Source: Actinomycetaceae bacterium
GTDB lineage: Bacteria > Actinomycetota > Actinomycetes > Actinomycetales > Actinomycetaceae
Direction: 5' to 3'
NCBI GenBank assembly: GCA_017934115.1
Contig: JAGBKC010000050.1
Span: 1 to 42,219, forward strand
DNA length: 42,219 nt
Shown in pieces: positions 7,001-27,484 of this stretch (positions are counted from its first letter, which is position 1; every line of letters begins with the position of its first letter). Under the pieces are notes generated by a model that was given only the letters and a program-made list of their open reading frames with translations, did no database searches and was not told where the DNA came from. A program made the translations under genes and the position numbers.

Positions 7001-7039
7001 AGAAAAAATAAGGGCGTAGAAGAAAAGACTTCCACGCCC
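7001..7039 (-). terminator. Rho-independent terminator ending the kinase/FHA gene run
   Basis: On the minus strand an 11-bp stem (GGGCGTGGAAG / CTTCTACGCCC, one G-U pair) is followed by TTATTTTTTCT. It begins 14 bases after the FHA-gene stop at 7053. Confidence 0.88.
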
Positions 7040-7052
7040 ATTAAAAACGCTT

Positions 7053-8249
7053 CTATCGTTGAGCCACTAAAGTCAATGTGTAGTTAGGGCCAAGAGTAAA
7101 TTCGCCTTCAACCTTCACTTCAACATCAGGAGTGATCTCAACATCATTCGGCTTGCGCCCTAAACTCACACCATTAGTCGAATTCAAATCTGTGATATAC
7201 CAATCGCCGTCATGGAAAACAAGACGGGCGTGTGTTTTAGACACTGTACGATCAACATTCAAATTCACAACTTGCGCACCACGGGTAATTGGACCACGTG
7301 GTTTACGACCAAGGATGACAATATCTTGAGTAAGATTAATTGTTTCACCATCAGCTGTAAGCAACGAAGATATTGGACGCTCAACAGCATTAACGATAAT
7401 CGTTTCATCATCTTCATCAAGAAAATCAGACTGTGGAACTTGCTGGGCCGCAACGGAAGAACGGCGACCTTGAGCAACCTCAGCTTGAATGGACGCCAAT
7501 TCATTTTCTAAATTAACAGCAGATGGTGATGAATCTTGCCCTTTAGCGCGAGCGATAGCTGCTTCGCGAAGACGTTTTTCTTCTTCAACGCGAGCGATGG
7601 CTGCTTCACGAGAACGGCGTTCTTCTTCATCACGAGCTGCTTGCTCAACACGAGCTCGATTATTAACAGCTTGTCTCTCTTCTTCGCGACGACGTGCAAC
7701 TTCAGCTAACCGACGCTCTTCTTCATCACGCTTATCACGCAAAGCTTGGAGTTTTTGCTCTTCAGTAAGGCGAGCTTCTTCGATTGCCTTCAAACGAGCC
7801 GCTTCTTCTGCCTGACGCTTTTCAATGACCGCACGTAAATCTGCATCGCGTTCTTGTTCTGCATGCTTACGCTTCGCCTCACTACGACGTGAAGGTGCAG
7901 CTTGAGCTGGAGCACTCAAAACATCTGCAGCTTTTTCAGCATTTTTCAGCAAATCGGGGTTACTTGCTGGCTTTTGCGTTGCCTTTTGAGCGTCCTTAGC
8001 CTTAAGATCTGCGAGCTTCTTTGCTGCGCGTGCTTTCTCTTGAGCTTTCACGGCACGTTCGTACTGTTCAACCATAGCTTCTTGAACAGCAGTACCACCA
8101 TTTGTCCACAACCACTGACGCAATGGTTCGTCAACATTTGGATTACAAGCAACAGTTACATATAACGAGCGATCTTTCTTAATGATTTCACGCATACGCT
8201 GAGGGGTGGTGCGTGGATTAGCCGCTTCCTCTGCTAATGATTGAGACAT
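7053..8249 (-). CDS. FHA-domain protein with LRV-like N-terminus and coiled coil
   Basis: A cytoplasmic phospho-threonine reader of 398 residues. Residues 1-60 resemble the variant leucine-rich repeat (LRV-like) module seen at the N-terminus of some actinobacterial FHA proteins. Residues about 125-236 are Glu/Arg/Ala-rich coiled coil with an internal duplication of about 14 residues (R-E-A-A-I-A-R). The C-terminal FHA domain (about 305-398) has the key G-R, S-K-T-H-A and N-S-T-N-G residues. T283 in D-D-E-T-I-I-V, about 20 residues before the FHA fold, resembles the regulatory phospho-site position of GarA/OdhI (my analogy). The ATG at 8249 is chosen over 8270 because AGGAACAGG lies just upstream of it. 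It is the last gene of the run, 57 bases after the transglutaminase-fold gene and before a strong terminator. Confidence 0.88.
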   Translation of the reverse strand: MSQSLAEEAANPRTTPQRMREIIKKDRSLYVTVACNPNVDEPLRQWLWTNGGTAVQEAMVEQYERAVKAQEKARAAKKLADLKAKDAQKATQKPASNPDLLKNAEKAADVLSAPAQAAPSRRSEAKRKHAEQERDADLRAVIEKRQAEEAARLKAIEEARLTEEQKLQALRDKRDEEERRLAEVARRREEERQAVNNRARVEQAARDEEERRSREAAIARVEEEKRLREAAIARAKGQDSSPSAVNLENELASIQAEVAQGRRSSVAAQQVPQSDFLDEDDETIIVNAVERPISSLLTADGETINLTQDIVILGRKPRGPITRGAQVVNLNVDRTVSKTHARLVFHDGDWYITDLNSTNGVSLGRKPNDVEITPDVEVKVEGEFTLGPNYTLTLVAQR

Positions 8250-8306
8250 ATACCTGTTCCTATCTACCATTAAGATACATTCGTAACTTATTTTAACGAT
8301 GTTACG

Positions 8307-10790
8307 CTATTTTTTCTTACGATAATGTAAAAATGATCGAATTGATATCCTCGTACGCAAGCGCCCTAAAAACTTTTGTGTGCGCACATGGGATTTCTGC
8401 TCTTCAATGACCTCCCGCCAGTATTCTTGGGCATACTCAGATGAGACATCCTGACCTGAGAATGCAGCATAATTAGCTTTTTGAGCTAACGACGTTACAT
8501 GATCATTAGCTTCTTCAGCAATTTCATTACGCGTTTGGTAACGCATCACAGCAACGCCAGAATCACGAATGGTATCAACATATTCGCGCCAGCCAGCAAT
8601 GACCTTTTGATTCGGATCACCCTTGCGCTTACGACGCGTACGGCGAATAAACTTTGCCAATAGCACACCCCATAATGGCGATGTTACAAGCAAAATAACT
8701 CCGCCTATCTTGGCAACCATGACCAGATAGACCATGATCTTCGAGAACGATGTTTCCTCACGATCACGAGTTTCCTCTTCACCAGCATTTGTCGGGTCTT
8801 TATCGGGCGGATCCATAGGAACAGCATTTTCTTGAGAAATTGCAGGGTTGTACTTACGGTAGGAATCTTTATCAGGTTGCTCGACGAAATCATTATCAAT
8901 ACGCGGGTCAACATCAAGAGATATCCACGTACCAGTAGCATCTTGGATTTCTACCCAAATAATTGTATCGCTTCCTTTGATTTCGCCAGTTTCATTGATA
9001 TTAGCACCAAAAACAACGCGAGACGGGAAACCAAGAACGCGTGCAATAAGCGCAGTAGCTGTTGCATACTGTTCTTCATCGCCAACGTGAGCAGCACATT
9101 TACCTACTCCTGTTGTATCGTCACATGAACGGTATTTACCATCAAGCATGGCAGAGAACAATCCGTCAATACGGCCAATACTTGAACCGGCGTCAGAACC
9201 GCGGAAAGTATAATCTTTTGGCATCCATGTGGTATCACCTTCAGGTTCCATCTTAGAGCGCCCCAAATATGAGCGTTCCATCAAGGCGTCGCGCAGACGA
9301 ATAACCTCGCCAACCGAACCACCACCAGTTTCCTGCGCCTTGATCCACTTATGAAGATTCGGCATATCATCCTCATTAGGAGGTGTAATGATTGCATTTT
9401 CTGGTGCTCTTCTCGAAGATACATCCGAAGAATCTTCACCGATAATATTGTGGTCTGTATACGTCAAAGTATAAGAATCGTCTTGACGCAAGGCAGATGA
9501 ACCGTCACGCTGAAAATTTTCAAAGGCAGATTGTGCCTCTTGATTGAAATAGAATCCATGAGAAAGATCAAGTTGAGAAGCACCTGAAAAATCAATTCTC
9601 TTCAATTGATCGGTAAGCGGGATCCATGGACTCTCATATGACTCAATCGTGATAGTTAATTCGTGTTCCTTACCAGTCGTATTCATAATCTGATAAGGAA
9701 CGCGCGCATACGTAGAATTCAAAGGATCTACCGTTTGCGTCGATACATTATCTACCATGTCTTTTGTATCTTGATACGCCTTAAACGCGGTACCGTCATA
9801 GTATCCCAACGCTGCAAAACGCAAACGGCTTGGAGCTTCACCATCGACACGCAACAAGACCGTATTCAAATTTTCAGACGTAAAAAAGCTGCGATAAGCC
9901 GAAATCGGGCTTGTTACTTCAGGTACTTCGTGTTCAACCTCAACAGCACTACGAGGTACCGAACGGTCACGCATATTTGTTAATGGAATAGCAATAATAA
10001 GAGCTAAAAATACAGCTGTCATCACCATCAATAACGCTGTAAAATGCTGGCGAAAAGCTTTTCTTTTTTCTTTACCTGTAGGTAAATTCGTGCCAGTTTG
10101 ACGCCCAGCTTTAATGCGTTCTGCGCGTTCTCTTCGAGTACGCAAAATAGGCCATCCAAGCAAGACAGCAAAACTTGCCAAGCCTGCAAATTGGTGAAAT
10201 GGCGAGGAAAAAACAAAAGAGCCAATAATAAGAGGTTCTTCTTCAACGGCAGAACCGAAAAGCGTAGGAAAAAACAACGCAAAAGTCAGTGGAATAAGCC
10301 CCATAAACCACTGACGCTTAGGATGCAGTAAAAAATAGGTCGCGATAGACGTAGCCCCATATAAAACTAAGAAAAGAGGAATTTGTGCATCTTCAAAATC
10401 TCCGGCAGGAAGTGGAATAGTAAGTAAGTTTTTCCAGCTAAAAATTGGGCCAGTAAAAACAAGACGTGCACCTTGAAGTAGTGAGGCTGGAAGCGCATAA
10501 AGCATCCATGTCATCGTGCCGACAAAAGCACCAATGAGATAAAGAAGAATAGTTGTTATTGTTGTTCCAAGAACACGCAGCCGGTATTTCACGACGATAA
10601 TTCCCAGCAGAACACCAAAGAAAGATGCCGAAAGGCCAGTTATACCAACCGTATATTTAACGTAAATAGGCCACGATGCCAAAGTAACAAGCATTGCCAA
10701 GGCAACAATAGAAAACAGACCAAGCAATGCGGAGCGGTCCAGCGTAATTTTACGCGGAGGTATTTTCTTCTTTTCACGTTGACGAGCCAT
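8307..10790 (-). CDS. Membrane protein with transglutaminase-like domain (TgM type), catalytic residues degenerate
   Basis: 827 residues: about six to seven transmembrane helices (20-270), a large extracytoplasmic region, the transglutaminase-like core (about 540-640), a further transmembrane helix near 685-710 and a basic cytoplasmic tail. This is the DUF3488/transglutaminase arrangement found beside MoxR and DUF58 genes. In the core, where the family has G-x-C-x-Q-[FY]-A, this protein has G-D-E-E-Q-Y-A (E572 for Cys). The H-A-W-V-E position reads I-I-W-V-E (I610 for His); D626 of the L-D motif remains. It is therefore unlikely to be a classical thiol transglutaminase or protease. Its start overlaps the DUF58 stop by one base (TAATG), implying translational coupling. 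Confidence 0.88.
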   Translation of the reverse strand: MARQREKKKIPPRKITLDRSALLGLFSIVALAMLVTLASWPIYVKYTVGITGLSASFFGVLLGIIVVKYRLRVLGTTITTILLYLIGAFVGTMTWMLYALPASLLQGARLVFTGPIFSWKNLLTIPLPAGDFEDAQIPLFLVLYGATSIATYFLLHPKRQWFMGLIPLTFALFFPTLFGSAVEEEPLIIGSFVFSSPFHQFAGLASFAVLLGWPILRTRRERAERIKAGRQTGTNLPTGKEKRKAFRQHFTALLMVMTAVFLALIIAIPLTNMRDRSVPRSAVEVEHEVPEVTSPISAYRSFFTSENLNTVLLRVDGEAPSRLRFAALGYYDGTAFKAYQDTKDMVDNVSTQTVDPLNSTYARVPYQIMNTTGKEHELTITIESYESPWIPLTDQLKRIDFSGASQLDLSHGFYFNQEAQSAFENFQRDGSSALRQDDSYTLTYTDHNIIGEDSSDVSSRRAPENAIITPPNEDDMPNLHKWIKAQETGGGSVGEVIRLRDALMERSYLGRSKMEPEGDTTWMPKDYTFRGSDAGSSIGRIDGLFSAMLDGKYRSCDDTTGVGKCAAHVGDEEQYATATALIARVLGFPSRVVFGANINETGEIKGSDTIIWVEIQDATGTWISLDVDPRIDNDFVEQPDKDSYRKYNPAISQENAVPMDPPDKDPTNAGEEETRDREETSFSKIMVYLVMVAKIGGVILLVTSPLWGVLLAKFIRRTRRKRKGDPNQKVIAGWREYVDTIRDSGVAVMRYQTRNEIAEEANDHVTSLAQKANYAAFSGQDVSSEYAQEYWREVIEEQKSHVRTQKFLGRLRTRISIRSFLHYRKKK

Positions 10791-12178
10791 TATGCTTGCA
10801 CCAGCCTTAACATAAGATGTTGCAAATCATCTAAAGTGCCGAGCGTAAAAACATTCATATCTTGAATTTGCTGGACACGTGGCTGTGATTCCACATCGAC
10901 GCGTATGACTGTCACGGCCGTATCTGGCGAAAACCTGCGGGCACTTACCTGCAATTCTGAAAGCTCAACACTACTTCCTGCCACCATAAAAACATTAGAA
11001 AGGAAATCAATGCCTGTTGCCGCCACCAAAGCAACATCGTCAAGAGGCATCATCATCTCAGAGTGTCCTAACAACGTAAATTCATTTAAGGTGCCCACAA
11101 GACCGCCTGTCGTAAACACACGGCGTGCAGATTTAGCAACATCTCGCGCCCCTTCAGGAATTTCATCACTCACGATCACATCGAGATCCTGATTATCACG
11201 AATGAGACGCAAAGCAAGCGAAGCTGCAGCACTCACACCCAACTCAAATTCTTCTTCATCTCTATATTCGCCATCATTAAGGGAAAGCAAAACACCCACC
11301 AAAGAACGACGTGTTTCTTCAAATTGACGCACCATCAACTGGCCAGTTTTTGCCGTTGTTTTCCAATGAATAGAGTGCATGGAATCGCCATTGACATATT
11401 CACGAATGGCATGGAAAGAAATATCGTCATTGACAAGATGATTCGATGGAGTACCTTCGAGATCTCGAATAAACCCTTGCGCCATCGATGGCAACATGAC
11501 TGTACGAGGATGAACATACAAAGTATGCTTATCAGTCCACTGTAAATCACGATGCAAAAGACCTACAGGATCAGCACGGATGGAACGCACAGGTCCCACC
11601 TCAATAACGCCACGTTTACGGGCAGGTATATCGAGTTCCTGTTTGTTTTTGCCACGCGGCAACAAGAAAGGAACTCCGGCTTCAGCAATGGCTTCACCAA
11701 TAGGGATTTCCAATGTGCCTGGCAAAAGAGGAGTTTTACCAGTATTAGTAACAGTGATAGAAGCAGTAACACCTTCACCTGCTGTGACATGATCTTGTAA
11801 AATTCCTAGATCAACATCGTAATTATTACCACCGAAAAGGAAGAAAGAAGAAAGAACAAGAAGAAAAAAAGCAGCTAAACCCGGTAAGATCCATTCGCCA
11901 ATACCAAAAGCAACACCAAAAGGAGTACACACAAGTGCTACCAAAATAGCCAAACGGCCAGGCACAGTAACATGCTCCTTAAACCATTGGGAAGCACGCG
12001 AGTAGCTATGAGCCACACTCTTGCTTGCATCATTGCGCAAAAAAGCCCACGATGCTTGCAAACGCTGGCGAAATGTACGACGCCCACCAACCGATAAAGA
12101 ATCGCTTGGCACACTCGTTGTACCACCCGTACGCGCTGTAACTGATCGAGTAGTAACTTCTAACCGGGTATCAGGCAT
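10790..12178 (-). CDS. DUF58 domain membrane protein
   Basis: 462 residues. Two adjacent transmembrane helices (about 72-115) precede a beta-rich segment and the DUF58 domain. The domain has the signature N-G-D-S-M-H-S-I-H-W-K-T-T-A around residue 267 and then Q-F-E-E. DUF58 proteins carry a von Willebrand A-like fold and act with MoxR-type AAA ATPases; the client is not known. One-base stop/start overlaps (TAATG) with both the MoxR gene upstream and the transglutaminase-fold gene downstream argue for stoichiometric co-production. There is no recognisable secretion signal apart from the membrane helices, and the DUF58 part is expected in the cytoplasm. Confidence 0.92.
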   Translation of the reverse strand: MPDTRLEVTTRSVTARTGGTTSVPSDSLSVGGRRTFRQRLQASWAFLRNDASKSVAHSYSRASQWFKEHVTVPGRLAILVALVCTPFGVAFGIGEWILPGLAAFFLLVLSSFFLFGGNNYDVDLGILQDHVTAGEGVTASITVTNTGKTPLLPGTLEIPIGEAIAEAGVPFLLPRGKNKQELDIPARKRGVIEVGPVRSIRADPVGLLHRDLQWTDKHTLYVHPRTVMLPSMAQGFIRDLEGTPSNHLVNDDISFHAIREYVNGDSMHSIHWKTTAKTGQLMVRQFEETRRSLVGVLLSLNDGEYRDEEEFELGVSAAASLALRLIRDNQDLDVIVSDEIPEGARDVAKSARRVFTTGGLVGTLNEFTLLGHSEMMMPLDDVALVAATGIDFLSNVFMVAGSSVELSELQVSARRFSPDTAVTVIRVDVESQPRVQQIQDMNVFTLGTLDDLQHLMLRLVQA

Positions 12179-13326
12179 TATTTATCTATTCCTCGCTCAG
12201 GTGGTGGTGTATCAAGAATGATTTGACCGATGATAGAATCAGATGTAACACCATCAAACTCTGCTTCAGGATCCAAAATAAGACGATGGCTCAATACAGG
12301 AATAGCAAGAGTTTTGATGTCATCCGGAATAACAAAAGAACGTCCATGTGCTAATGCCCATGTGCGAGCAGCATTCGTTAACGCCAAAGCACCTCGCACA
12401 GATGATCCCAAACGCGTTTGAGCAGCATCACGAGTAGCCTCAATGATGCGCGTAATGTAATCAACAATCGCAGGAGCAATGGCGACTTGACGAGCCATTT
12501 GCGCCATTGTTGTTACTTCACTAGGCGTAATAACAGATTCGATCGTATCAGTCGACACATTGCGCCCTTCGATAATCTGACGCGTTGATGCCGTATCAGG
12601 ATAACCAACAGAGGTTTTCATAATGAAACGATCCAGCTGCGCTTCTGGCAAACGGTATGTACCAGCCTGTTCCACAGGATTTTGCGTTGCAATGACCATG
12701 AACGGCTTCGGCATTGCCCACTGCACACCATCAACTGTAGCTTGACCTTCTTCCATTACTTCCAAAAGAGCTGACTGTGTTTTTGGCGATGCACGGTTAA
12801 TTTCGTCTGCAAGAACGATGTTAGAAAAAATTGGGCCGCGATGAAACTCGAATTTCTGTTGCTGCTGGTTGTAAATATTCACACCAGTAATGTCTGCAGG
12901 AAGAAGATCAGGAGTGAACTGGATACGTGACGTATTACCACCAATAGTGCGCGAAAGAGCACGTGCTAATGCGGTTTTCCCTGTTCCCGGAACATCCTCA
13001 AGAAGAAGATGGCCTTCAGAAAACAAAGCTGTATATGCCAATTCAATAACGTGTTTCTTACCAACAATGGCTGTGCTGACTGCAGCTACAAGATTATTGA
13101 AATTATGTGCAAACCACTCTTCATTGATGCGAGGCGTCTGCCCTTGCGCCTTCGGGGCACGCTGAGCGGCTTGTGGAGCTTGTGCCTGCCCTGGCGATGC
13201 AGGAGTGCCCGCAGATGGACGCACTCCACCTTGAGGAATTCCACCTTGTGGGCGCATCTGCGCAGCTGCTGGATCTGCCTCGCGCCTACGAGGGCGACGT
13301 GCTGGCATTTGTTCTGCTTCACTCAT
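12178..13326 (-). CDS. moxR: MoxR-family AAA+ ATPase
   Basis: 382 residues. A 70-residue Pro/Ala/Gln-rich disordered N-terminal extension precedes a standard MoxR AAA core. Walker A is G-T-G-K-T in L-E-D-V-P-G-T-G-K-T-A, Walker B is V-L-A-D-E-I-N-R-A, and sensor 1 lies in A-T-Q-N-P-V-E. The ATPase lid helical domain follows. MoxR proteins act as chaperones that remodel or activate client complexes, usually with a VWA-type partner; here the DUF58 protein encoded immediately downstream fills that role by position. The ATG at 13326 has GGAAGGAA upstream. The gene lies 36 bases after the giant Ig/FN3 gene. Confidence 0.95.
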   Translation of the reverse strand: MSEAEQMPARRPRRREADPAAAQMRPQGGIPQGGVRPSAGTPASPGQAQAPQAAQRAPKAQGQTPRINEEWFAHNFNNLVAAVSTAIVGKKHVIELAYTALFSEGHLLLEDVPGTGKTALARALSRTIGGNTSRIQFTPDLLPADITGVNIYNQQQQKFEFHRGPIFSNIVLADEINRASPKTQSALLEVMEEGQATVDGVQWAMPKPFMVIATQNPVEQAGTYRLPEAQLDRFIMKTSVGYPDTASTRQIIEGRNVSTDTIESVITPSEVTTMAQMARQVAIAPAIVDYITRIIEATRDAAQTRLGSSVRGALALTNAARTWALAHGRSFVIPDDIKTLAIPVLSHRLILDPEAEFDGVTSDSIIGQIILDTPPPERGIDK

Positions 13327-13362
13327 AAATATTCCTTCCCGACTCTTCCCTATTCTAACGCC

Positions 13363-16300
13363 TTACATAACGCTCGCTTTGAAGATGATCGTTTGTGTTT
13401 TCGTACCTAAATGCCCTAACTTATTCTTATAGTTCACGGAGATAGCCACTAATTGTTGCGCGCCTGCGTACCCTCGAACATTCTCAAGAGTAATGACTCC
13501 GTTATCAATAGAACAAGAACTAATTGAGCCCGACGCTTGGCAAGAAAGTTCATAGTCACTCGTATTGCTTGGCAAACCATCAACGGCAATCTTGATAGTG
13601 GTTCGCGCACTATAGAGTGCGTCGCTAACTTCAGTGGTTCCCCCATTGATAGCGACAGAACCATCATTATGCGAACCAACCCAACGTGCCTGCAAACCGC
13701 TTGCATTATATGGATATGCGATTCCGGCATTTGCATTATGTTGCAATTGGATCTTCTTGTAATTTTCAGCCTGCGTATTAGTCAAATTACCATTGTCAAT
13801 GAGGAACCAGCCAATCCATACTGATTCACCCTTAGCTTCGACAACACGCGCATAATACTGGCCATCAGGAGACTTAAAGCAGTTATCCTTTGAAATTTCA
13901 CTGACCTTCTTATGAGTGGAATCTTTAGCAAGCCATAGTTCCGTACCCGAATAGAAGTACGTAATTCCGTTGGTATCTGTTGGCGCATCATTAAGCCACT
14001 TTGTTTCAATACTTGATGTGCCTTTTACCGAAGAACCAAAGACAGTTCCACTGCTGACCGGCCACACCTCAAGAGTAATATTATTGGTACCCTTCTTAGT
14101 GACCGATGAATCAATTGTAGCATCAATTTCTAAGCGCACTTCTTGATCGCTTGTGATGCGCTGACGTGTGCCACTTGCTTGACCATTGACATACCACTGA
14201 TATTCAGCACCATCTGCGTTTGTCGTGATATAGAAGCGAGAAATGATCTTCTTTCCGCTTGTATTTGTTGCTACATGGCGAACTTGAGGCACACCCACAC
14301 CCCAAACAGTTATTTCATTGGAGCGTGATGTAAGTGTGCTTGGGACCTGCAAAGCTGCTGGCGGATTCACTGACGAGCGCGCTTCAGCATACACACGCGT
14401 TGCATTTGCTTTACCATTTGGAATGCCCGTAAGCTTAACTTCACCCGACTTCGTCACTTGAATACGCGGCTTCATACCACTGCCATCATTAGCACTGTAG
14501 TAGATATATGCCTTCTGCCCAGAAGCAACCCCCATATCAACATTAATGTAAGCAACGCCGTTATGGTCATTTTCGCGCGGAGCACCCTCCCACGAAATTG
14601 TCGGCTTAATCGGGGCACCATATGCATATACACCTGTAAGGCGTGTAGCTTCTGAATCACCCTTCGACGAATGTGCTGTCACAGTAACAGTAATATTCTC
14701 GAAGTTCGTTAAATCGTCAATTCGGCATGTGCCTTCACTACAATGCTTTGAACCATTACCACCGGCACCCGACCATACAACATTGTAATATTCCACAGGA
14801 GGATTCGAAGATCCGCCTGAGGTAATACGGACAACCACATATCCATCACCAGCGGTTTGCAATGCCAATGTTGGTGTTGGTGGAGCTGCTGAAACAGTAA
14901 CACTGATACTAATAACACCAGAATTCTTTTGAGAATCTTGAATGCGCACTGAACCATTCCATGTGCCACCATAAGCATTTTGACCGGCAGTTACTTGAAC
15001 TGTATTGCCCACTACTTGACCAGATAATCCAGAGTTTGATGGGAAGCTCACCGACCCAGCAACCAAAGAAAGTTCACCATAATGACGCACATTCTGATTC
15101 ATCGCCACTAAATCATCTGTTGTAGCTGTTCGTGATTGTGCAGTATCGATCGTCAACGATGTACCGCGAGGATTGAGTGAAAGAGGAGCAAGAGTTCCTA
15201 CTTTAATACGCAAGCGCCCTGTTGGTGCACCCTGAGGATAGTTACCAGAAGTGATGCGAACATCAAAGACAGCAGTTGCACCTTGCTGTGCTGTTACATC
15301 TGCACTGATAGTTGCCGTGCTACCGTTACATGTGATCGTCACGCCTTGAGCACCTACAGCATTGCCACAAGCAAATGCCAAAGAATCAAAGTCTTTATCT
15401 GAACGCCAGGAAACAGACTGACGCAAGTCGTATGTTGTTGTTTGGCCAGGATCTACAACTGCAACCTGCTGGCTAACAATAGATGGCGGCGGATCTGCCA
15501 AAACAATATGGATAGGCAAGGAAATTTGTGTAACCGACTTATCATAACCCTGCCACTTCACTGTTACAAGGCAAGCGTCATATTCACCACTATTAGCATC
15601 ACCTGCACGATATTGAAGAACATTACCTGCAATAATGCAGTTAGCACCTTGACGTCCGCCCGATGTGCGCGCGGCAGATACCTCTAATGTGCGCCCTGCC
15701 AGATCTGCAACAGCATCGAGCATATTGATATCAAGAGTTTCTCCCTGATTTACCTCATATACATGCGTTGGATTCTTCAATTCTGGAACAACCGTTTGTG
15801 TTTGCGGAACACGCACAAATCCCCATGTTTTTACATCTTCATTATTCGGCGTTGTACCAGCAACTTCAAAGACGATAATTTGGCGCGCCTCCGTTAAAGA
15901 ACCTTCAATACGGTTGTTATTCAAATTCGCATCAACATCACCTAAAATGCGTGTCATTAAAGGCGACCCCGACCATACAACCTTATTTGTCAAAACATCT
16001 GCTGAATAATCTTCATTATTTATGTCATCAGAGCTGATGTATGTATCTCGCACAATCGGATAAATCGGTAAAGCAGATTCCAAAGCATTGACAACAATAA
16101 TGCCTTCTGCCTTAGTGCCTTCATTTTCAGTACCTTGAACAACTTCGGCAGTATCATCACCCTGAGCACTCAATGTATAACGATAAATCAGCTTTCCAGC
16201 TTCTTCTGGCACCTGCAAGGTCACCATATTATCTTCACCAACAGTGGCCGTAGCTTTTTCTTCTTCGCCAGTTACTTCTTCATTATCAAGAGCATTATTC

Positions 16301-19300
16301 AATGGCTGCAATGCAACATCTTCAACAACAAGTTTTTGCGAACCAACTGTACGGTCATTCAAAGTCGGATTAATAGTAACGGTTCCTACACCGGGTTTTA
16401 CTTCGACATAATCATTATAGGCAACAGGTGCACGTGGAGTATCCACAATAACACCAACTTTCACCTGGGCTGTTGATGTTGCACCTTGAGAATCCATCAA
16501 CGTATATTCAAATTCGATCGGACCTGATTCATCCGTTGATGTAATACGAATGCGCCCATCAGAAAGCAATTGAGCTGAACCATGTTCAGCAGGTTGAGTC
16601 ACTGATGAAACCACTAAATCATCACCATCTGGGTCAACACCAAAGGTGGGAATAGTGATCAAAGTAGAATTTCGCGCTTCGACACGTGCCTGCACTAATT
16701 GTGCCTCAGGCGCTTTATTTGTTCCATCACCAATGACATGAACATTTACGCGGCCCTGCGTTTTTTCATCTGAATATCCTTGAGCATACGCAGTGTAGAA
16801 CAATGTGTAATAACCTGGTTCTGTTGGTGCTAAATATCGTAAGGTCGTATCAGAGGAAAACGAAAGACCTGTTTCATCATCAACCGACTGAGTTGCATCC
16901 AACGTAAGAGTCGTACCAGCAGCAGGAATATCATTATTGAGCACAGGAATATCTACTTGACTTCCTGCACGAACTGTTACTTGATCGGTAATAGTAACTG
17001 GCTTGGTAGAAGCAGAATCGTCAAGTTCAAAAACAGTGACGTATCCTGTTGCACTCTCTTCACCATCAGTAATGGTATACGAAGCACTACCAATACGACC
17101 AGCAGAGTTATTAGCTGTTTGACCAGAAAAACGCAAAGTTGAACCTGCGATGGCTTCAGCTGTTAAGGCCGCACCTTCTGCAGGTTGAGATTGCGCATCT
17201 CGAACCATGACGACACCATCAGAAGATTGCGTCGCTAACTCAAGAGGATCTATAGTGACATCTTCATTGGGGCGCAAAAAGACCGTTAGCGGTGGAACAG
17301 ACAGTTTCGTATTGGCAGCAAAGGAATTAACGAGCACAGTTCCTGTTGCTGTTGATGTACCCGATTCCACCTTGTATTTAATTGGATACACGCCTTCTTG
17401 CGTTGGAGTAACTATCAAAGAAAGCTCATCAGAATTCTTTACAATAGAAATATTTTGTTTGAGTTGTTCATCTTCTACATCAGCAGAAACAAGTTCAGCT
17501 CGCGCCGTGCGTGCATCATTGACAGAAACACCGCTAATAAATTGCGATAATTCGATTTTCTGTGTAGCACTTGTGGGAACTGAACGGGCAAAAGAACGTG
17601 CATATACTGCAGGAGATTCACTAACAGTAATATTAAAGTTTTGCGTTGACGAACCATCGCCGTGACCGTCAGCAACAGTGACTGCGATCTGCACTTCTCC
17701 TGCTTCTTGATCATCATCTGCCTGATAAGCAACTGTTCCTTGTGGAGTTGCTGCAACTGTACCTGCAGATGCACTTACGCCCGATATATATAATGGATCA
17801 CCATCAGGATCGACCCATCCGGCTAAACCGTCAAATGTCAAAGAGCCGCCAGGGGCAACTTGCAAATGGTTAAGATAATCTTCTTGCGCGCTACGGTATT
17901 CTGGCTTACTACGAACGTCATCACCATGAACAGATACTTGTGCTTCTGCTTGAACAGAGCAATTTCCTGAACCATCAGTAATGGTGTATGTAAAAGTTCC
18001 TGAACCAGATGTGGCCGAAGGAGTCAGTGAAACTGATTGGTTATTATTTGTTAACGATAATTCTCCAATACCATCGCCCTTCCAGTGAGGCGAATTTTCA
18101 GAAGGAATAATTGTGATGGTGTCATCAGCATTGGGATCAAGAGCTGAGGCTAAAACACTAATATTGGTTGCTTGCCCAGGGCGTACACCAAATTCTGCAG
18201 CGCGTCCTACAGCTGGTGATGGACACTCATTTGAAGAAGCATCTTGATTTTGCTGTTCATTTTGCTCGTCATTTTCTTTGGCATCTTCTTCCCATTGCAA
18301 AGAAGATTGCACAAATTTCCATTCATTTTTATATTTTTCCCACACCAAACCGGTAGTCGTATCATTCAAAATGAGTTGCTGCCCATTTGCACGTAATGTT
18401 GGTGTCGAATTTGTTGCATTCACGCTTGATGGATATTCGAGAGGCTCAATATTTCCACCACAACTCGATATCATCGCAGAAGAACCCGTTGTCCATGCAG
18501 CATACACACATCCGCCCATCCAATATGGAGACGCGGGAACGGCCGCACTTAAAGTGGAATTTGTTTGAGATCGTTCTTCTACTCCGTCTGTATTTAATTC
18601 GTGTAAACCGCTTTGGTCAGCAATAACGAGATGTGAAGCAGATTCAGAAGAGTTTGCTAAAGCACCAACACCTGTTACAGTAAAATCACTTTGTTTTCCA
18701 TCAACCCACAGATATGATCGCTGTTCATCACGTATAAGCAGACCCCAATGGTCTTCTTGAAAAACGGACATATCGACAGAAATAGCGTTATCAGGAATAG
18801 TGATATCAGTTTGCGTATCTTCGCGTTTACCATCCTTGACGTCATAACTCACCAACGTACCTAAAGAGGTAATGCCGTATAAAATACCCGATTCAGTAAC
18901 AGTTGCAGAAACGAATTCTTCACTTGCATTTTCTGCCTTTTCATTAACCGAGCTAACAGTTGCACCTTTGGCAAGTTCATCAATTGTGGTAACACCCAAA
19001 GAACCTGAACTTTGGTTCAAAAAGGCAACGTATTCGCCAGCCGTTACGACTTTATCAGCCCCTAGCGGTTTTGCAGGTAAAACATCTTGGCTATCAACAC
19101 TTACTGGATTCTTTTCATCAACAACTAGCATATTCTGATTTGAATACACGATGGTATGTGAAGCATTTTGAATAACACCAGTAATTTGGAAAGTAGAAGA
19201 GTTTCCTGAATGCACAGAAGAAAGTTCAGCAATTTCCGTATTGATGGCACCATAAAAAGAGCTGCCCCCTGAGCGCAAAGCCCATACAGACGAGCGCGCA

Positions 19301-19446
19301 ACCTTCACTTCTTGTTCTGTTGTACCCTTAGTAGCAGAAATTCCCACAATCGCTAACGCGCACACGACAAGAACACCAATAGCAGCCATAATGTTACGGC
19401 CAGTATTGCGTTTTTTTGCCCATGAAGATTGACCTGAAACTGCCAT
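13363..19446 (-). CDS. Giant membrane-anchored Ig-like/fibronectin III surface protein (FN3 of a PFNA-type cluster)
   Basis: 2027 residues. A short basic cytoplasmic N-terminus and one transmembrane helix (about 20-40) put the rest outside the cell. Residues about 45-390 are a repeat-poor region with short beta-strand periodicity, perhaps propeller-like. Next come about nine to ten Ig/cadherin-like repeats with D-x-D-G-D-x-L motifs, for example W-V-D-P-D-G-D-P-L and G-V-D-P-D-G-D-D-L. A fibronectin III domain begins around residue 1540, followed by a unique C-terminal region. No LPxTG motif is seen. The ATG at 19446 starts one base after the kinase stop, with GGATGG upstream. This coupling and the bare C-terminus of the kinase suggest it provides an extracellular sensing or adhesive domain for the kinase. 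A TTG at 19470 is the alternative start. Confidence 0.9.
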   Translation of the reverse strand: MAVSGQSSWAKKRNTGRNIMAAIGVLVVCALAIVGISATKGTTEQEVKVARSSVWALRSGGSSFYGAINTEIAELSSVHSGNSSTFQITGVIQNASHTIVYSNQNMLVVDEKNPVSVDSQDVLPAKPLGADKVVTAGEYVAFLNQSSGSLGVTTIDELAKGATVSSVNEKAENASEEFVSATVTESGILYGITSLGTLVSYDVKDGKREDTQTDITIPDNAISVDMSVFQEDHWGLLIRDEQRSYLWVDGKQSDFTVTGVGALANSSESASHLVIADQSGLHELNTDGVEERSQTNSTLSAAVPASPYWMGGCVYAAWTTGSSAMISSCGGNIEPLEYPSSVNATNSTPTLRANGQQLILNDTTTGLVWEKYKNEWKFVQSSLQWEEDAKENDEQNEQQNQDASSNECPSPAVGRAAEFGVRPGQATNISVLASALDPNADDTITIIPSENSPHWKGDGIGELSLTNNNQSVSLTPSATSGSGTFTYTITDGSGNCSVQAEAQVSVHGDDVRSKPEYRSAQEDYLNHLQVAPGGSLTFDGLAGWVDPDGDPLYISGVSASAGTVAATPQGTVAYQADDDQEAGEVQIAVTVADGHGDGSSTQNFNITVSESPAVYARSFARSVPTSATQKIELSQFISGVSVNDARTARAELVSADVEDEQLKQNISIVKNSDELSLIVTPTQEGVYPIKYKVESGTSTATGTVLVNSFAANTKLSVPPLTVFLRPNEDVTIDPLELATQSSDGVVMVRDAQSQPAEGAALTAEAIAGSTLRFSGQTANNSAGRIGSASYTITDGEESATGYVTVFELDDSASTKPVTITDQVTVRAGSQVDIPVLNNDIPAAGTTLTLDATQSVDDETGLSFSSDTTLRYLAPTEPGYYTLFYTAYAQGYSDEKTQGRVNVHVIGDGTNKAPEAQLVQARVEARNSTLITIPTFGVDPDGDDLVVSSVTQPAEHGSAQLLSDGRIRITSTDESGPIEFEYTLMDSQGATSTAQVKVGVIVDTPRAPVAYNDYVEVKPGVGTVTINPTLNDRTVGSQKLVVEDVALQPLNNALDNEEVTGEEEKATATVGEDNMVTLQVPEEAGKLIYRYTLSAQGDDTAEVVQGTENEGTKAEGIIVVNALESALPIYPIVRDTYISSDDINNEDYSADVLTNKVVWSGSPLMTRILGDVDANLNNNRIEGSLTEARQIIVFEVAGTTPNNEDVKTWGFVRVPQTQTVVPELKNPTHVYEVNQGETLDINMLDAVADLAGRTLEVSAARTSGGRQGANCIIAGNVLQYRAGDANSGEYDACLVTVKWQGYDKSVTQISLPIHIVLADPPPSIVSQQVAVVDPGQTTTYDLRQSVSWRSDKDFDSLAFACGNAVGAQGVTITCNGSTATISADVTAQQGATAVFDVRITSGNYPQGAPTGRLRIKVGTLAPLSLNPRGTSLTIDTAQSRTATTDDLVAMNQNVRHYGELSLVAGSVSFPSNSGLSGQVVGNTVQVTAGQNAYGGTWNGSVRIQDSQKNSGVISISVTVSAAPPTPTLALQTAGDGYVVVRITSGGSSNPPVEYYNVVWSGAGGNGSKHCSEGTCRIDDLTNFENITVTVTAHSSKGDSEATRLTGVYAYGAPIKPTISWEGAPRENDHNGVAYINVDMGVASGQKAYIYYSANDGSGMKPRIQVTKSGEVKLTGIPNGKANATRVYAEARSSVNPPAALQVPSTLTSRSNEITVWGVGVPQVRHVATNTSGKKIISRFYITTNADGAEYQWYVNGQASGTRQRITSDQEVRLEIDATIDSSVTKKGTNNITLEVWPVSSGTVFGSSVKGTSSIETKWLNDAPTDTNGITYFYSGTELWLAKDSTHKKVSEISKDNCFKSPDGQYYARVVEAKGESVWIGWFLIDNGNLTNTQAENYKKIQLQHNANAGIAYPYNASGLQARWVGSHNDGSVAINGGTTEVSDALYSARTTIKIAVDGLPSNTSDYELSCQASGSISSCSIDNGVITLENVRGYAGAQQLVAISVNYKNKLGHLGTKTQTIIFKASVM

Positions 19447-19447
19447 A

Positions 19448-20563
19448 TTACAACACCATCCATGCTCCAAAAAGAACGGCTAATACAACGCCTGCCCCAG
19501 CTAACGCTCCCCATACCCATGACGGAGTTTTGCTGACTGATGCTTCAAGTTCATTATTTTCACGCTCTGATGCCAAAGAAGCCACAGTCGTTTTGCGCGT
19601 GCGTCTCTTTGATTCATAAGCGACGGTAGAGCGGCCTTCCACACGTGTTTGAGAATCATCAAAATCGAGTTTGGCGCCAGCACCAGCCCATTCTTCAGAT
19701 GCAACATCACACGGCGTAACATTGAAACCCATTGCTTCTTGCACCATCTGAATATGCTGAGCAAATTCAAGTGCCGACTTTTGGCGGTTTTCTGGACGTG
19801 TAGATAATGATTGTTTCAAAATAGTGATGAGATCAGGGCTGACATCATCACGATCAAGAGGAGTCATGCGCCCACGCAAGACACGCTTACGCAATTCTTC
19901 CTTTGCGTTGCTGCCACCAGCGATTTCATAAGGAGAATGCCCAGCAAGAAGCGAATAAACGGTTGACCCTAAAGCATATACTTCCGTAGCAACTGTGCCC
20001 TTCGTTTTATATGTTAAAACCTCAGGAGCAGACCACGGCACTGACATTGCGAAAGTTTGATTTCCTGAACGCCCTGAAAGTGAGGTAGCAATACCAAAAT
20101 CAGCCAAAACCGGGGTACCGAACGAGGTGTACAAAATATTAGAAGGCTTGATATCTCGATGTAAAACACCAGAGCGATGCGCTGTTTCCAAAGCAGAACC
20201 AATGCGCACAGCAATATCGAGAACATCTTTCAAAGGCATCACTTCTCGCCTATAAGCGGGGCTCACCGAACGCGGACAATATTCCATTACCAAATAAGGG
20301 CGACCATCTGGAGCAATAGCTGCCTCATAAACAGTCAAAATAGAAGGATGTGAAGAAAGACGCGCCATCGTATCGGCTTCTGCGTTAAACATTTTAATGA
20401 CATCTTCATCAACAACATCAGCCAATAACACTTTCACAGCAACAGAACGACGCGGCATATTCTGTTCATATAAAAACACGTCAGCAAAACCACCCGTACC
20501 TAAAGGACGGATAGGGCTAAACCCAGAAAGCGTAGGAGGTGTTGATGGAAGACGTTTTGCCAT
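19448..20563 (-). CDS. Membrane-anchored Ser/Thr protein kinase (Pkb2-like)
   Basis: 371 residues. The kinase domain (about 12-275) has every catalytic element: G-loop G-T-G-G-F-A (22-27), K44, E62, H-R-D with D137, D-F-G with D155, and A-P-E at 179-181. It should phosphorylate Ser/Thr of cytoplasmic targets. A basic linker leads to a single transmembrane helix formed by the last 26 residues, so unlike PknB-type kinases it has no ectodomain of its own. GAAAGG lies upstream of the ATG at 20563. The gene follows the PP2C gene by 114 bases and abuts the Ig/FN3 gene. The order kinase, FN3, AAA ATPase, DUF58, TgM matches the PFNA cluster described in bifidobacteria. Confidence 0.95.
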   Translation of the reverse strand: MAKRLPSTPPTLSGFSPIRPLGTGGFADVFLYEQNMPRRSVAVKVLLADVVDEDVIKMFNAEADTMARLSSHPSILTVYEAAIAPDGRPYLVMEYCPRSVSPAYRREVMPLKDVLDIAVRIGSALETAHRSGVLHRDIKPSNILYTSFGTPVLADFGIATSLSGRSGNQTFAMSVPWSAPEVLTYKTKGTVATEVYALGSTVYSLLAGHSPYEIAGGSNAKEELRKRVLRGRMTPLDRDDVSPDLITILKQSLSTRPENRQKSALEFAQHIQMVQEAMGFNVTPCDVASEEWAGAGAKLDFDDSQTRVEGRSTVAYESKRRTRKTTVASLASERENNELEASVSKTPSWVWGALAGAGVVLAVLFGAWMVL

Positions 20564-20621
20564 CTGTTGCTACCTTTCAATACACACGTTAAGTATCAAT
20601 ATTACATTTTCTTTTCTTCAT

Positions 20622-20627
20622 ATTATA
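20622..20627 (-). promoter_or_regulatory. Possible -10 box (TATAAT) of an internal promoter for the kinase gene
   Basis: A perfect TATAAT lies on the minus strand in the 114-base gap between the phosphatase and kinase genes, about 55 bases before the kinase ATG. No -35 match is visible, and the hexamer is part of an imperfect hairpin (ATTATAGGG / CCCATAAT, 20622-20645). Transcription of the kinase may thus start here as well as upstream of the phosphatase. Confidence 0.25.
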
Positions 20628-20677
20628 GGGTCAGAGTCCCATAATATTTTTACTTCCCTTTATCTGGCATCACTCTA

Positions 20678-22282
20678 TTAAAAGCCTGTATTTGTCTGCG
20701 AATCCGACATTTTATAGATAAAACCACGCGGAGCATTCGCATGCGGATCAACATCAAGCGGATTGACTTCTTCAATGTCATACGATTCATCATCGTCATC
20801 ATCCAATTCAAAGAAATTATCATCTTCGATTTCCGGGGCAATAAAATCAAATTCTTCAGCTGATGATACTTGTGGAGCGACCGAGAATGTATCTTCATCT
20901 TCTTCGACCTGATGAACAGGTGTTTCGTAAAGCGAAGAATCTACTTTCTCCAAATTGGCAATACGAATTGGTTCAGTATCACGTGTAACTACGATCGTTT
21001 CATCCTCACCATCAGGAATATCTTGATCTGCGTCTTGTGCCACAATAGTATCGTCATTCACGATGAATGTTTCTTCATCATCGTCATAATGTGCATATTT
21101 ATCGACGACAAAAGTTTCATCATCCATTTCATCTTCGTTTTCTTCTGGATCGTAATAAGGGTTATATTGCGGCATCGCCGTTTCTGATCCTGTGAAGAAA
21201 GACGCTGATGTTTCGTGCGCAGGAGCCACACGTGTATCTTCGTTAATATTGCCAGGATTTTCATCACCAACACCGACACTCACCTCGAAACCAGCTACCT
21301 GAGTTGCACCTTCACGTGATGTGTCATCTGTATCGCCATGTTCATCATCAAAATCTATCGAGGAACCTGCAACCAAAGCCGCTTCGTCATCCTCAATGCC
21401 GGATTCTTCAAAATTATCAATAGCATTCGAACGTGGCACTTGCACACTTGTCGTATCCATGCCTATTGCTGCTGCACGCTTAACAGCGTTATCAAGAGAT
21501 TGATCAACAATAGATGAATCACCTTCACCTCCGCCAGTTAAACCGCCAGAGACCACATCGATAACGATCACCGTGATATTATCGTTTCCACCATTAACAA
21601 TAGCGCGTTCTACCAGTGCTTCTACTGTAGATTTTGGCGTTCCTGACATAATAAGCGAAGCCCGCAACGCCTCAGGATTCATCATAGAATAGAGGCCATC
21701 GGAACAAATAAGAAGACGTTCACCATTGACAACAGGAGCAAAAAAGAAATCCGGTTGAGAATCTGGAGCTCCGATCGCCTTGGTGATTTCATGGGAACGT
21801 GTTGACGTTAGCGCCTCTTGCGGAGTGATAATACCTTGATCGACCCACAACTGTATCACCGAATGATCGCGCGTCCACTGAGCTAGAGAATTACCTAAAC
21901 TTCTATACACACGTGAATCACCCACATTAAACACCAGCCAGTGAGGCACACCTTGGCGCATTACCAAAGCTATCCCTGAAACTGTTGAACCAGCACCGTG
22001 AGGTCGGTCGACCGACAGACGAGCCACACGCTCTTGAGCAGCTTTGAGAGCCTCAATAACTTTGCGCGTACTTGTTGGGCGCGGTTCACGCGGATCAGTG
22101 AGCTTTGCCAGCTCCTCTACAACAATTGCGCTAGCAACCTCACCAGAATCATGGCCACCCATACCATCAGCAATAGCAAAAACTGGAAATTGAGCTATCC
22201 CACTGTCCTCGTTGATTTTTCGACGCAAACCAATATCAGTTGCGATAGCCGCGTTAATGGTGACGGTTGACTGAGATTCCAT
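20678..22282 (-). CDS. PP2C-type Ser/Thr phosphatase with long acidic tail
   Basis: 534 residues. The PP2C domain (1-245) has metal-binding acids D26 (N-E-D), D39 (A-D-G-M-G-G-H), D195 (S-D-G) and D234 (G-N-D-N), so it should be an active Mn/Mg-dependent phosphatase opposing the neighbouring kinase. Unlike PstP it has no transmembrane segment. Instead a 290-residue Asp/Glu-rich, probably disordered tail carries repeated (D/E)-T-x-x-V motifs at T390, T405, T429 and T465, plus a related one at T412. The start is set at the ATG at 22282 because GGGAGC lies four bases upstream and homology begins there; the open frame runs 102 bases further upstream without a ribosome-binding site. It is the first gene of the minus-strand run. 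Confidence 0.93.
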   Translation of the reverse strand: MESQSTVTINAAIATDIGLRRKINEDSGIAQFPVFAIADGMGGHDSGEVASAIVVEELAKLTDPREPRPTSTRKVIEALKAAQERVARLSVDRPHGAGSTVSGIALVMRQGVPHWLVFNVGDSRVYRSLGNSLAQWTRDHSVIQLWVDQGIITPQEALTSTRSHEITKAIGAPDSQPDFFFAPVVNGERLLICSDGLYSMMNPEALRASLIMSGTPKSTVEALVERAIVNGGNDNITVIVIDVVSGGLTGGGEGDSSIVDQSLDNAVKRAAAIGMDTTSVQVPRSNAIDNFEESGIEDDEAALVAGSSIDFDDEHGDTDDTSREGATQVAGFEVSVGVGDENPGNINEDTRVAPAHETSASFFTGSETAMPQYNPYYDPEENEDEMDDETFVVDKYAHYDDDEETFIVNDDTIVAQDADQDIPDGEDETIVVTRDTEPIRIANLEKVDSSLYETPVHQVEEDEDTFSVAPQVSSAEEFDFIAPEIEDDNFFELDDDDDESYDIEEVNPLDVDPHANAPRGFIYKMSDSQTNTGF

Positions 22283-22516
22283 GTTGCTCCCTATACATAC
22301 ATGTACGGTAGATCTGCTTATTTCTAGTAGTTTACTCACATGTTGGCGCTGGTGCATGTATACAAAAAGGCGCGTCATACACACCTCATCACAACAACTC
22401 TTATTGTAGCTGGTCTTTTAGTCAATTTAGACCATATAAAGAAAAGCAAAATATGTTTTTGTTATAGTTGATACAAGCATGGAAGCAGAAACGAAACGCA
22501 GGGGAAAGGTTGTCAG

Positions 22517-25945: not shown

Positions 25946-27484
25946 GTGACTCCTCATAATATAGGCGGATACAAAATCCTTAAAACTCTTGGTAGCGGTG
26001 GCATGTCAACCGTCTACGAAGCAGAAAACGGCAATGGCGAACATGTTGCCTTAAAAGTTCTTTCTGAAGCTTATGCAGATGCTACTGGGCGCGAACGTTT
26101 GGCACGCGAAGTTCAGTTGATGTTAGGCATCGACAGCGACGCAATTGCGCGCATTATCGATGCTGAAACCGACGACTCTCCGTGCTTCATTGTTACTGAA
26201 CTCATCGATGGACTCACTTTAGATAAAGATGTGTCCGCTAACGGCCTCTATGAAGGGGATGACCTAGTACACTTGGCTACTGAACTCTATGACGCCATCC
26301 AAACTATTCACACAGCTGGTGTTCTTCATCGCGACCTTAAACCATCAAATGTCATAATAAGCAGCCGAGGACCTGTAATCATTGATTTTGGCATTTCCAT
26401 GCTTGAAACAGACACTCGCCTGACTACACCTGGAAATATACTCTTAACCCCAGGATACTGCGACCCGCGTATCATCAACAACAACACACCTGATGAAGAG
26501 GCAGATCTATGGGCATTAGCTGCCGTTTTACTATTTGCAGCTACTGGCGAACCTCCGTTTGGCACTGGAAATACTCAAGCAATTTTTCACCGAGTACTCA
26601 CTGGCGACATAAACACAACTGGTCTTGAACCACATCTTGCTAGAGCTTTTACAATGGCTCTGGCACCTGAAAACCGCATGAGTTTCCCTGATCTGCTTGA
26701 ATGTCTTAAAAATCCAGATCACATCACCATAATAGAAACTCAACCAGCACAAACATCTGCTCATACAGCACAAACAACACGCCTATATTCATCATTACCT
26801 TCTGATAATATCCCCAGCTTTCCTCCCGCTTCTGAAACTATCGGCACTTCTGAGTACGCTCCGCCCTCTTCAGAACGATCCATCAGCACAGCTCCACCTG
26901 AACAGCACGATAGATCATCTTCATTACCACGTCATTACCCACTCTTCACTCATGGTATTTTTCTTTTTTCCCTCCTCGCCCTTATATCTTTTTCCCCCTT
27001 TTATCCCCTCATTTCCTTCCTTATTATCTACATGTCAATAACACTAGGGGGAATTTACGCACATACCTCATACCGTTTTTTTGCCAGCTCACCTAAAGAA
27101 TTATCTTTGCGCTCTCAGCCTTATAACATCATCAGTGGCACAATAAAAACAGTTACGCACGTAACATTTACAAGCGTTGTTCTTTTAGTTTTGTGCACAC
27201 TGATCGAATATTTTTTTGAAATAACATATATTATGGCAACGCATCATATCTTAATAACCCTCACTACCATTATCATCAGTATCTTTTATATTTTTCCGAC
27301 ATCTCGTCTTGGGTATAAAGGAATACGTGCAGGAATTTACACATATTCTCAAACATTTTCACACAAACTTATGTGGCTTATTCTTCTTATCCTCACAACC
27401 ATCGTTTTATTTTCTCTCTATGAAGTAAATCCACAGACCTCATGGTTTCCCTTCGAACATATTCCCTATCTCCCTAGCATATAA
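25946..27484 (+). CDS. Second Ser/Thr protein kinase with multi-pass membrane C-terminus
   Basis: 512 residues. The kinase domain (about 8-260) has G-loop G-S-G-G-M-S (16-21), K37, H-R-D-L-K-P-S-N with D130 and D-F-G with D147. Catalysis should be intact, although the A-P-E motif is replaced by C-D-P-R. A Ser/Pro-rich linker (about 265-330) leads to five or six predicted transmembrane helices (about 335-505) with short loops and no sizeable external domain, so it is unlike the PASTA type. The start is GTG at 25946; AAGAAATC upstream is a weak ribosome-binding site. It sits between the FmdB-type gene and the DsbA-like gene. Confidence 0.92.
   Translation: MTPHNIGGYKILKTLGSGGMSTVYEAENGNGEHVALKVLSEAYADATGRERLAREVQLMLGIDSDAIARIIDAETDDSPCFIVTELIDGLTLDKDVSANGLYEGDDLVHLATELYDAIQTIHTAGVLHRDLKPSNVIISSRGPVIIDFGISMLETDTRLTTPGNILLTPGYCDPRIINNNTPDEEADLWALAAVLLFAATGEPPFGTGNTQAIFHRVLTGDINTTGLEPHLARAFTMALAPENRMSFPDLLECLKNPDHITIIETQPAQTSAHTAQTTRLYSSLPSDNIPSFPPASETIGTSEYAPPSSERSISTAPPEQHDRSSSLPRHYPLFTHGIFLFSLLALISFSPFYPLISFLIIYMSITLGGIYAHTSYRFFASSPKELSLRSQPYNIISGTIKTVTHVTFTSVVLLVLCTLIEYFFEITYIMATHHILITLTTIIISIFYIFPTSRLGYKGIRAGIYTYSQTFSHKLMWLILLILTTIVLFSLYEVNPQTSWFPFEHIPYLPSI

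What the first reader, a model, noticed from the sequence alone, without database searches (positions are those of the whole stretch)
20880..21118. Array of (D/E)-T-x-x-V motifs in the phosphatase tail, also present in the FHA protein
The PP2C tail repeats acidic motifs: D-D-E-T-F-V-V (T390), E-E-T-F-I-V (T405), D-E-T-I-V-V (T429) and D-E-D-T-F-S-V (T465), with a variant at T412. The FHA protein has D-D-E-T-I-I-V (T283) just before its FHA domain. Thr with a hydrophobic +3 residue fits FHA recognition, and the acidic context recalls the GarA/OdhI phospho-site. The tail may be a multivalent docking platform for the FHA protein, written by the neighbouring kinase.
Basis: inference. Interest (0 to 1): 0.65.

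Follow-up and report, generated by a model that had tools for sequence, protein, structure and literature searches.

The report
Phosphatase tail with repeated phosphothreonine-like motifs
A bacterial protein phosphatase carries a floppy tail with four or five copies of the same short threonine motif that also sits beside the phosphothreonine-reading domain of a protein from the same operon; the copies are kept by natural selection in seven related genomes, so the tail is probably a phosphorylation-controlled docking strip, although no binding or phosphorylation has been shown.

Summary
The PP2C tail (minus strand) holds four [DE][DE]Txx[VI] motifs (T390, T405, T429, T465) and a variant (T412). 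The same motif, DDETIIV, precedes the FHA domain of the last gene of the operon. Composition cannot explain it: shuffled tails average 0.17 copies (p=5e-5), and the equally acidic linker of the genome's own PstP has none.

The array is conserved. All three genomes of the genus and all four examined of the Pseudoclavibacter genus have such tails; the other PP2C orthologues collected do not. Tail-bearing PP2Cs form one clade (100/100) nested among Microbacteriaceae, so the operon probably moved horizontally. In a close pair, motif cores are 96% identical against 59% elsewhere, with mostly synonymous changes. Around the tails' threonines, V/I peaks at +3 and D/E at -1; serines show nothing. The threonine before the FHA domain is invariant in 31 orthologues.

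Best reading: phosphosites written by the operon's kinase, read by the operon's FHA protein, erased by the phosphatase itself. This is a new variant of a known kind (GarA/OdhI, DgcB, Rv1747; PFNA-type operon). New are the array on the phosphatase itself and its apparent link with loss of a second FHA gene.

The parts
20678..22282 (-). PP2C-type Ser/Thr phosphatase with long disordered C-terminal tail (534 aa from the ATG at 22282; the ORF can start at the GTG at 22384)
   Evidence: Pfam PF13672; metal-site residues invariant in the alignment; AlphaFold model of the domain matches PstP 1txo, Foldseek E=2e-20
21548..22282 (-). PP2C catalytic domain, about residues 1-245
   Evidence: pLDDT above 85 over most of it; 34% identity to PstP in the structural match
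20678..21547 (-). acidic C-terminal tail, predicted disordered from about residue 302 on apart from a short strand near 356-364
   Evidence: pLDDT below 50 over 302-350 and most of 367-534
21104..21124 (-). motif DDETFVV, T390
21059..21079 (-). motif DEETFIV, T405
21038..21058 (-). variant motif NDDTIVA, T412
20987..21007 (-). motif EDETIVV, T429
20879..20899 (-). motif DEDTFSV, T465
20681..20737 (-). conserved C-terminal peptide NAPRGFIYKMSDSQTNTGF, alignable in all three genomes of the genus although the array before it is not
   Evidence: alignment
19448..20563 (-). membrane-anchored Ser/Thr kinase, presumed writer; ends just after its transmembrane helix
   Evidence: Pfam PF00069 E=3e-42; HRDIKPSN and DFG present; tail comparison
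13363..19470 (-). large FN3/Ig-repeat surface protein of the operon
   Evidence: orthologous to the operon protein in relatives; tandem-95 repeat match below cut-off
12178..13326 (-). MoxR AAA+ ATPase
   Evidence: PF07726 E=4e-63
10790..12178 (-). DUF58 protein
   Evidence: PF01882
8307..10790 (-). membrane transglutaminase-like protein
   Evidence: PF01841
7053..8270 (-). FHA protein (N-terminal LRV_2, long helix, disordered linker, FHA), presumed reader
   Evidence: PF25591 and PF00498; AlphaFold model; Foldseek to ArnA, OdhI, GarA, DgcB FHA
   Evidence: T290 invariant in 31 orthologues
7056..7349 (-). FHA domain with the canonical GR...SxxH...STNG residues
   Evidence: invariant columns G321 R322 S344 H347 T365 N366 G367
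7012..7039 (-). terminator-like hairpin just after the FHA gene, probable operon end
   Evidence: 11-bp stem followed by T-run

Best explanation
The tail is a multi-copy docking strip of acidic-T-hydrophobic short linear motifs. The operon's membrane kinase phosphorylates the threonines. The FHA domain of the operon's FHA protein binds the phosphothreonines, using V/I at +3, and can also bind its own pT290 as in OdhI/GarA. Several FHA proteins can therefore gather on one phosphatase when the kinase is active, bringing the phosphatase into the kinase/MoxR/DUF58/transglutaminase membrane complex. The phosphatase can erase the marks in cis and on T290, which makes the assembly self-limiting. Shown here by sequence: the array is real, Thr-specific, predicted disordered, selected, restricted to one clade, and matches an invariant Thr next to the operon's FHA domain. 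Inferred: which kinase writes, that FHA binds, and the effect on the phosphatase.
For: Array not explained by composition in six of seven tails; the seventh (L169) has one strict copy (p=0.10) and several relaxed ones. Tail-bearing PP2Cs are one clade, 100/100. Motif cores under purifying selection in a close pair: 24/25 against 74/125 identical residues (p=1e-4); synonymous:nonsynonymous changes 6:1 against 21:51. Over all 94 tail Thr: D/E at -1 62% (background 25%), V/I at +3 45% (background 13%, p=2e-13), nothing around Ser or Ala. Same-genome PstP acidic linker has no motif. Pre-FHA Thr invariant in 31 orthologues while its surroundings drift. FHA ligand residues kept. The typical operon has a second FHA gene between PP2C and kinase, missing where the tail is long. 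Published: the +3 Val of the DgcB self-peptide points into the FHA cleft (PMC6733907); mycobacterial phosphosites prefer acidic neighbours, and pThr near acidic residues rises most on PstP depletion (PMC6554272); the Bifidobacterium operon kinase Pkb2 phosphorylates the operon's MoxR (PMC8430577).
Against: No phosphorylation or binding data for any member. +3 V is not conserved in the wider FHA1 family (11 of 31). The AlphaFold model gives the T290 peptide low confidence and no defined place (unphosphorylated, so weak evidence). Several Microbacterium loci lack the second FHA gene and have short tails, so the link with gene loss is not strict. All tail-bearing sequences descend from one origin, so the residue statistics overstate independence.
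Confidence: 0.6

Rival explanations
1. The threonines are kinase substrate sites that tune the phosphatase (activity, stability or cis-substrate competition), with no FHA reader; the motif is simply the kinase consensus.
For: Acidic residues around the phospho-Thr are the known preference of mycobacterial Ser/Thr kinases, and PknA/PknB are reported to phosphorylate and activate PstP (PMC6554272). The same motif in the FHA protein could equally reflect kinase preference.
Against: The V/I enrichment peaks sharply at +3 and stops at +4. Several interchangeable copies with turnover of position suggest multivalent docking rather than one regulatory site. A catalytic tuning site need not sit in a tail that other orthologues lack.
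Confidence: 0.2
2. The array docks another FHA protein (GarA-like on contig C33, or one of the two FHA domains of the pknB-pstP cluster on C40) and couples this operon to the general kinase network.
For: Three other FHA domains exist in the genome. FHA domains commonly bind several phospho-Thr ligands.
Against: The matching motif is invariant beside the operon's own FHA domain, and array and operon travel together between distant lineages.
Confidence: 0.12
3. Phosphorylation-independent acidic-hydrophobic strips that add as beta-strands to a partner or to the phosphatase itself.
For: The acidic run followed by V/I resembles beta-addition motifs; one tail segment near residues 356-364 is modelled as a strand.
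Against: The pattern is specific to Thr: no V/I or D/E enrichment around Ser or Ala apart from a weak V/I signal at -3 of Ser; Thr is kept in a fast-evolving tail. The modelled strand lies outside the array.
Confidence: 0.06
4. Chance or composition effect of an acidic low-complexity tail.
For: The tail is 30% acidic.
Against: Shuffle tests, PstP-linker control, conservation and codon evidence.
Confidence: 0.02

Closest known systems
OdhI / GarA (Corynebacterium, Mycobacterium) FHA switch
   Same: A phosphorylatable Thr in a disordered stretch just N-terminal to a canonical FHA domain; invariant here in the operon FHA family.
   Different: Different motif (DETIIV against ETTS-type, the latter from memory), larger protein with LRV and long helix; target unknown; motif also present as an array in a phosphatase tail.
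Bdellovibrio DgcB FHA-tail (PMC6733907)
   Same: Self-peptide LEKpTSIV with Glu at -2 and I/V at +2/+3, very close to EKTVLV and DETIIV found here.
   Different: One site, effector is a diguanylate cyclase, no phosphatase tail array.
Rv1747 FHA module with disordered linker (described in PMC9312465)
   Same: Phosphorylation-tuned assembly of FHA domains through a disordered linker, reversed by the PstP phosphatase.
   Different: There both parts are on one ABC transporter; here the presumed strip is on the phosphatase that would erase the marks.
PFNA operon of Bifidobacterium (pkb2-fn3-aaa-atp-duf58-tgm-prpC-fha; PMC8430577)
   Same: Same gene set; kinase Pkb2 phosphorylates the operon MoxR.
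   Different: Gene order differs (phosphatase first here); the passages read of that review describe no tail array on prpC.
PpkA/PppA/Fha of type VI secretion (PMC12607579)
   Same: Kinase, PP2C phosphatase and FHA protein as a posttranslational switch; PppA is among the structural matches of this PP2C.
   Different: The marked Thr is on Fha, not in a phosphatase tail; no secretion apparatus in this operon.

Membership tests
PP2C (PPM) Ser/Thr phosphatase | PP2C fold and metal-binding Asp residues | tested here: met
   PF13672 over cut-off; D39, G40, D195, D234 invariant; Foldseek to PstP E=2e-20
FHA domain protein | FHA fold with GR, SxxH and (S)TNG ligand residues | tested here: met
   PF00498, invariant columns, Foldseek
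OdhI/GarA | Over the NCBIfam OdhI equivalog cut-off | tested here: not met
   21.6 bits against a cut-off of 200
OdhI/GarA-like self-switch (works like) | Conserved phosphorylatable Thr N-terminal to the FHA domain | tested here: met
   T290 invariant in 31
OdhI/GarA-like self-switch (works like) | Phosphorylation of that Thr and intramolecular binding | not testable with these tools
   needs a phosphopeptide or NMR assay
PFNA-type operon | kinase, FN3 protein, MoxR, DUF58, transglutaminase together, with phosphatase and FHA | tested here: met
Multivalent FHA ligand array | Several Thr motifs with FHA-type +3 residue in a disordered chain | tested here: met
Multivalent FHA ligand array | Phospho-dependent binding of FHA | not testable with these tools
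   no binding data

The most novel reading that the evidence does not exclude
A phosphatase that carries its own erasable, multivalent recruitment strip: kinase activity loads the PP2C with FHA proteins, and the phosphatase clears the loading sites in cis, giving a self-timed assembly that functionally replaces the second FHA scaffold lost from this operon.
Probability: 0.25. Interest if true: 0.75.

Novelty: new variant of a known kind. Interest (0 to 1): 0.55.

Why it matters
PP2C phosphatases of bacteria are usually regarded as broad erasers with little targeting. A selected array of presumed FHA ligands on the phosphatase itself would show how an eraser is brought to its reader and writer. 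It would also make the poorly understood MoxR-DUF58-transglutaminase-FN3 operon, widespread in Actinobacteria, open to direct peptide-binding tests.

Tried and rejected
Composition artefact: rejected by global and local shuffles, reversed-motif and Ser controls, and the PstP linker. Genome-wide use of the motif: no excess; the strict matches inspected lie mostly in folded enzymes or exported proteins, with one membrane protein (L160) as a possible further client. Recent DNA duplication of the motifs: codons differ. Docking of the T290 peptide or of the tail in AlphaFold models: both have low confidence there. PDB sequence search with the FHA protein: no match. A second operon copy in Pseudoclavibacter as internal control: the second PP2C has no operon genes around it. 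Kinase juxtamembrane Thr: the window's QTRV and STVA are not conserved in congeners. The peptide strings printed are wrongly offset; only the tail lengths, gaps and number of strings from that call are used. Papers on the kinase consensus and on Rv1747 condensates were not held.

Full report
What is there. The window is a contig (C35) of a 1.46-Mb genome assembly; its nearest named relative is an uncultured Actinomyces MAG, RUG11864 (L005). On the minus strand lies a seven-gene operon: PP2C phosphatase (20678-22282), Ser/Thr kinase, a 2035-aa FN3/Ig-repeat protein, MoxR, DUF58, transglutaminase-like protein and an LRV/FHA protein (7053-8270) followed by a terminator-like hairpin at 7039-7012. 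The same set is known as the PFNA cluster in Bifidobacterium, where the kinase Pkb2 phosphorylates the operon's MoxR (PMC8430577).

The motif. The PP2C tail holds DDETFVV (T390), DEETFIV (T405), NDDTIVA (T412), EDETIVV (T429) and DEDTFSV (T465), and the FHA protein holds DDETIIV just before its FHA domain. In the window's 200-aa tail the strict motif [DE][DE]Txx[VI] occurs 4 times against 0.17 in shuffles (p=5e-5) and 0.20 in 20-aa local shuffles; the reversed motif and the Ser version are not enriched. The genome's own PstP has a 178-aa linker, 28% acidic with 9 Thr, and no copy.

Strict motif counts are 4 in the G002 tail, 3 in the last 200 residues of G001 (plus EDTTTV further upstream and relaxed ADTVLV, DEDTVLA), 3 in P. 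caeni, 5 in Pseudoclavibacter 13-3, 3 in G154 and 1 in G153, which has several relaxed copies such as HDTVLVRR, DDQTIVVRR and DAETVLVRP. Shuffle p-values are at most 4e-4 (8e-4 in local shuffles) except G153 (0.10). Other operon-type orthologues have tails of mostly 10-60 aa without the motif; L060, with a 229-aa tail, has no strict copy. In the PP2C-domain tree the seven tail-bearing proteins are one clade with 100/100 support and lie among Microbacteriaceae, away from other Actinomycetaceae copies. Kinase (66-67%) and MoxR (72-74%) identities to Pseudoclavibacter, against 35-50% and 59-65% for the other loci compared, agree. Horizontal movement of the operon is the simplest reading; direction was not tested.

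Selection on the motifs. Within the genus the catalytic domain, a block after it and the C-terminal peptide NAPRxFIYxIxDADTNTGF align well, while the array between them does not align, which is motif turnover. In the close pair Pseudoclavibacter 13-3/G154, motif cores (-1 to +3) are identical at 24 of 25 positions, the rest of the tail at 74 of 125; differing codons are 6 synonymous to 1 nonsynonymous in cores, 21 to 51 elsewhere (Fisher p=1e-4 and 0.006). Core windows were chosen by the motif in either sequence, so some bias remains.

What surrounds Thr. Over all 94 Thr of the seven tails, without choosing motifs, D/E is 43, 49 and 62% at -3, -2 and -1 (background 25%), V/I is 29, 26 and 45% at +1, +2 and +3 (background 13%) and falls to background at +4; Ser and Ala show no such profile. 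Sequences share ancestry, so p-values are too small, but Ser in the same chains is a fair control. A Thr requirement with a hydrophobic +3 is the expected signature of an FHA ligand; in DgcB the +3 Val points into the FHA cleft (PMC6733907). The acidic side fits mycobacterial phosphosites (PMC6554272).

The FHA partner. In 31 operon FHA proteins from several families the pre-domain Thr is invariant, with D/E at -2 in 30, V/R/I at +1 in 29 and mostly hydrophobic residues at +2; +3 is V in 11 and S or A in 16. In the tail-bearing clade +3 is V in all seven (TIIV, TIIV, TVVV, TVLV x4). The ligand-contact residues GR, SxxH and TNG are invariant. AlphaFold gives a confident FHA domain with a low-confidence motif; Foldseek matches include ArnA, OdhI, GarA, FhaA and DgcB FHA structures. 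The AlphaFold model of the PP2C has a confident catalytic domain and a disordered tail.

Gene content. Most relatives have a second FHA gene between PP2C and kinase; 44 ORFs in the collected loci carry DHDGxT, usually followed by I or V, and an SxxH-like pattern, and those read in full have it shortly before an FHA domain; some have a second Thr motif, LWGxT. In the five tail-bearing genomes read this far there is no room for a gene between PP2C and kinase. Some Microbacterium loci also lack it and have short tails, so loss of the second FHA gene is neither sufficient nor proven causal. The tail-bearing kinases also end just after the membrane helix, without the extracellular part of other relatives.

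Mechanism, with status. Shown: array, disorder prediction, Thr specificity, conservation, single clade, active-site conservation of the phosphatase, conserved FHA ligand pocket. Inferred: phosphorylation by the operon kinase, binding by the operon FHA domain, multivalent assembly, cis dephosphorylation. I put 0.6 on FHA docking as the main function, 0.2 on kinase-site regulation without a reader, and smaller weights on other readers or phospho-independent binding.

Novelty. FHA self-switches (OdhI, GarA, DgcB), linker-driven FHA assembly (Rv1747) and kinase-phosphatase-FHA modules (type VI secretion) are known. In the papers held here I found no description of a multi-copy FHA-ligand-like array on a bacterial PP2C phosphatase; that search was limited to an open-licence library. 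I class it as a new variant of a known kind.

Noticed in passing
L017, L018, L019, L051, L070, L073 and others, gene between PP2C and kinase: The second FHA protein of this operon type carries a strongly conserved DHDGxT(I/V) motif before its FHA domain and in several loci a second motif LWGxTV; both look like further phospho-Thr ligands.
   Followed up: partly
window 19448-20563 and L005, L118, L006, L007: Kinases of the tail-bearing clade end right after the transmembrane helix, whereas other relatives have a long extracellular part; the sensor seems lost together with the second FHA gene.
   Followed up: partly
window 7053-22282 against L006, L007, L168, L169: The whole operon of this Actinomycetaceae genus is closest to that of Pseudoclavibacter (Microbacteriaceae), suggesting horizontal transfer.
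   Followed up: partly
window 20681-20737: The last 19-28 residues of the phosphatase (NAPRxFIYxIxDADTNTGF) are conserved in the genus although the tail before them is scrambled; a separate docking peptide is likely.
   Followed up: no
window 22517-25450: Divergent gene for a 977-aa protein with an SseB domain and a long disordered region; it contains one NDTQIV site; a second kinase gene follows at 25946-27484.
   Followed up: no
L160 (contig C81 of the same genome) 452-1783: Membrane protein with an acidic cytoplasmic-looking tail that contains DEDTVFV, a possible further client of the same reader.
   Followed up: no
L063: Contig labelled Stenotrophomonas maltophilia P13 carries a Microbacterium-like copy of this operon; probably contamination of that assembly.
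   Followed up: no
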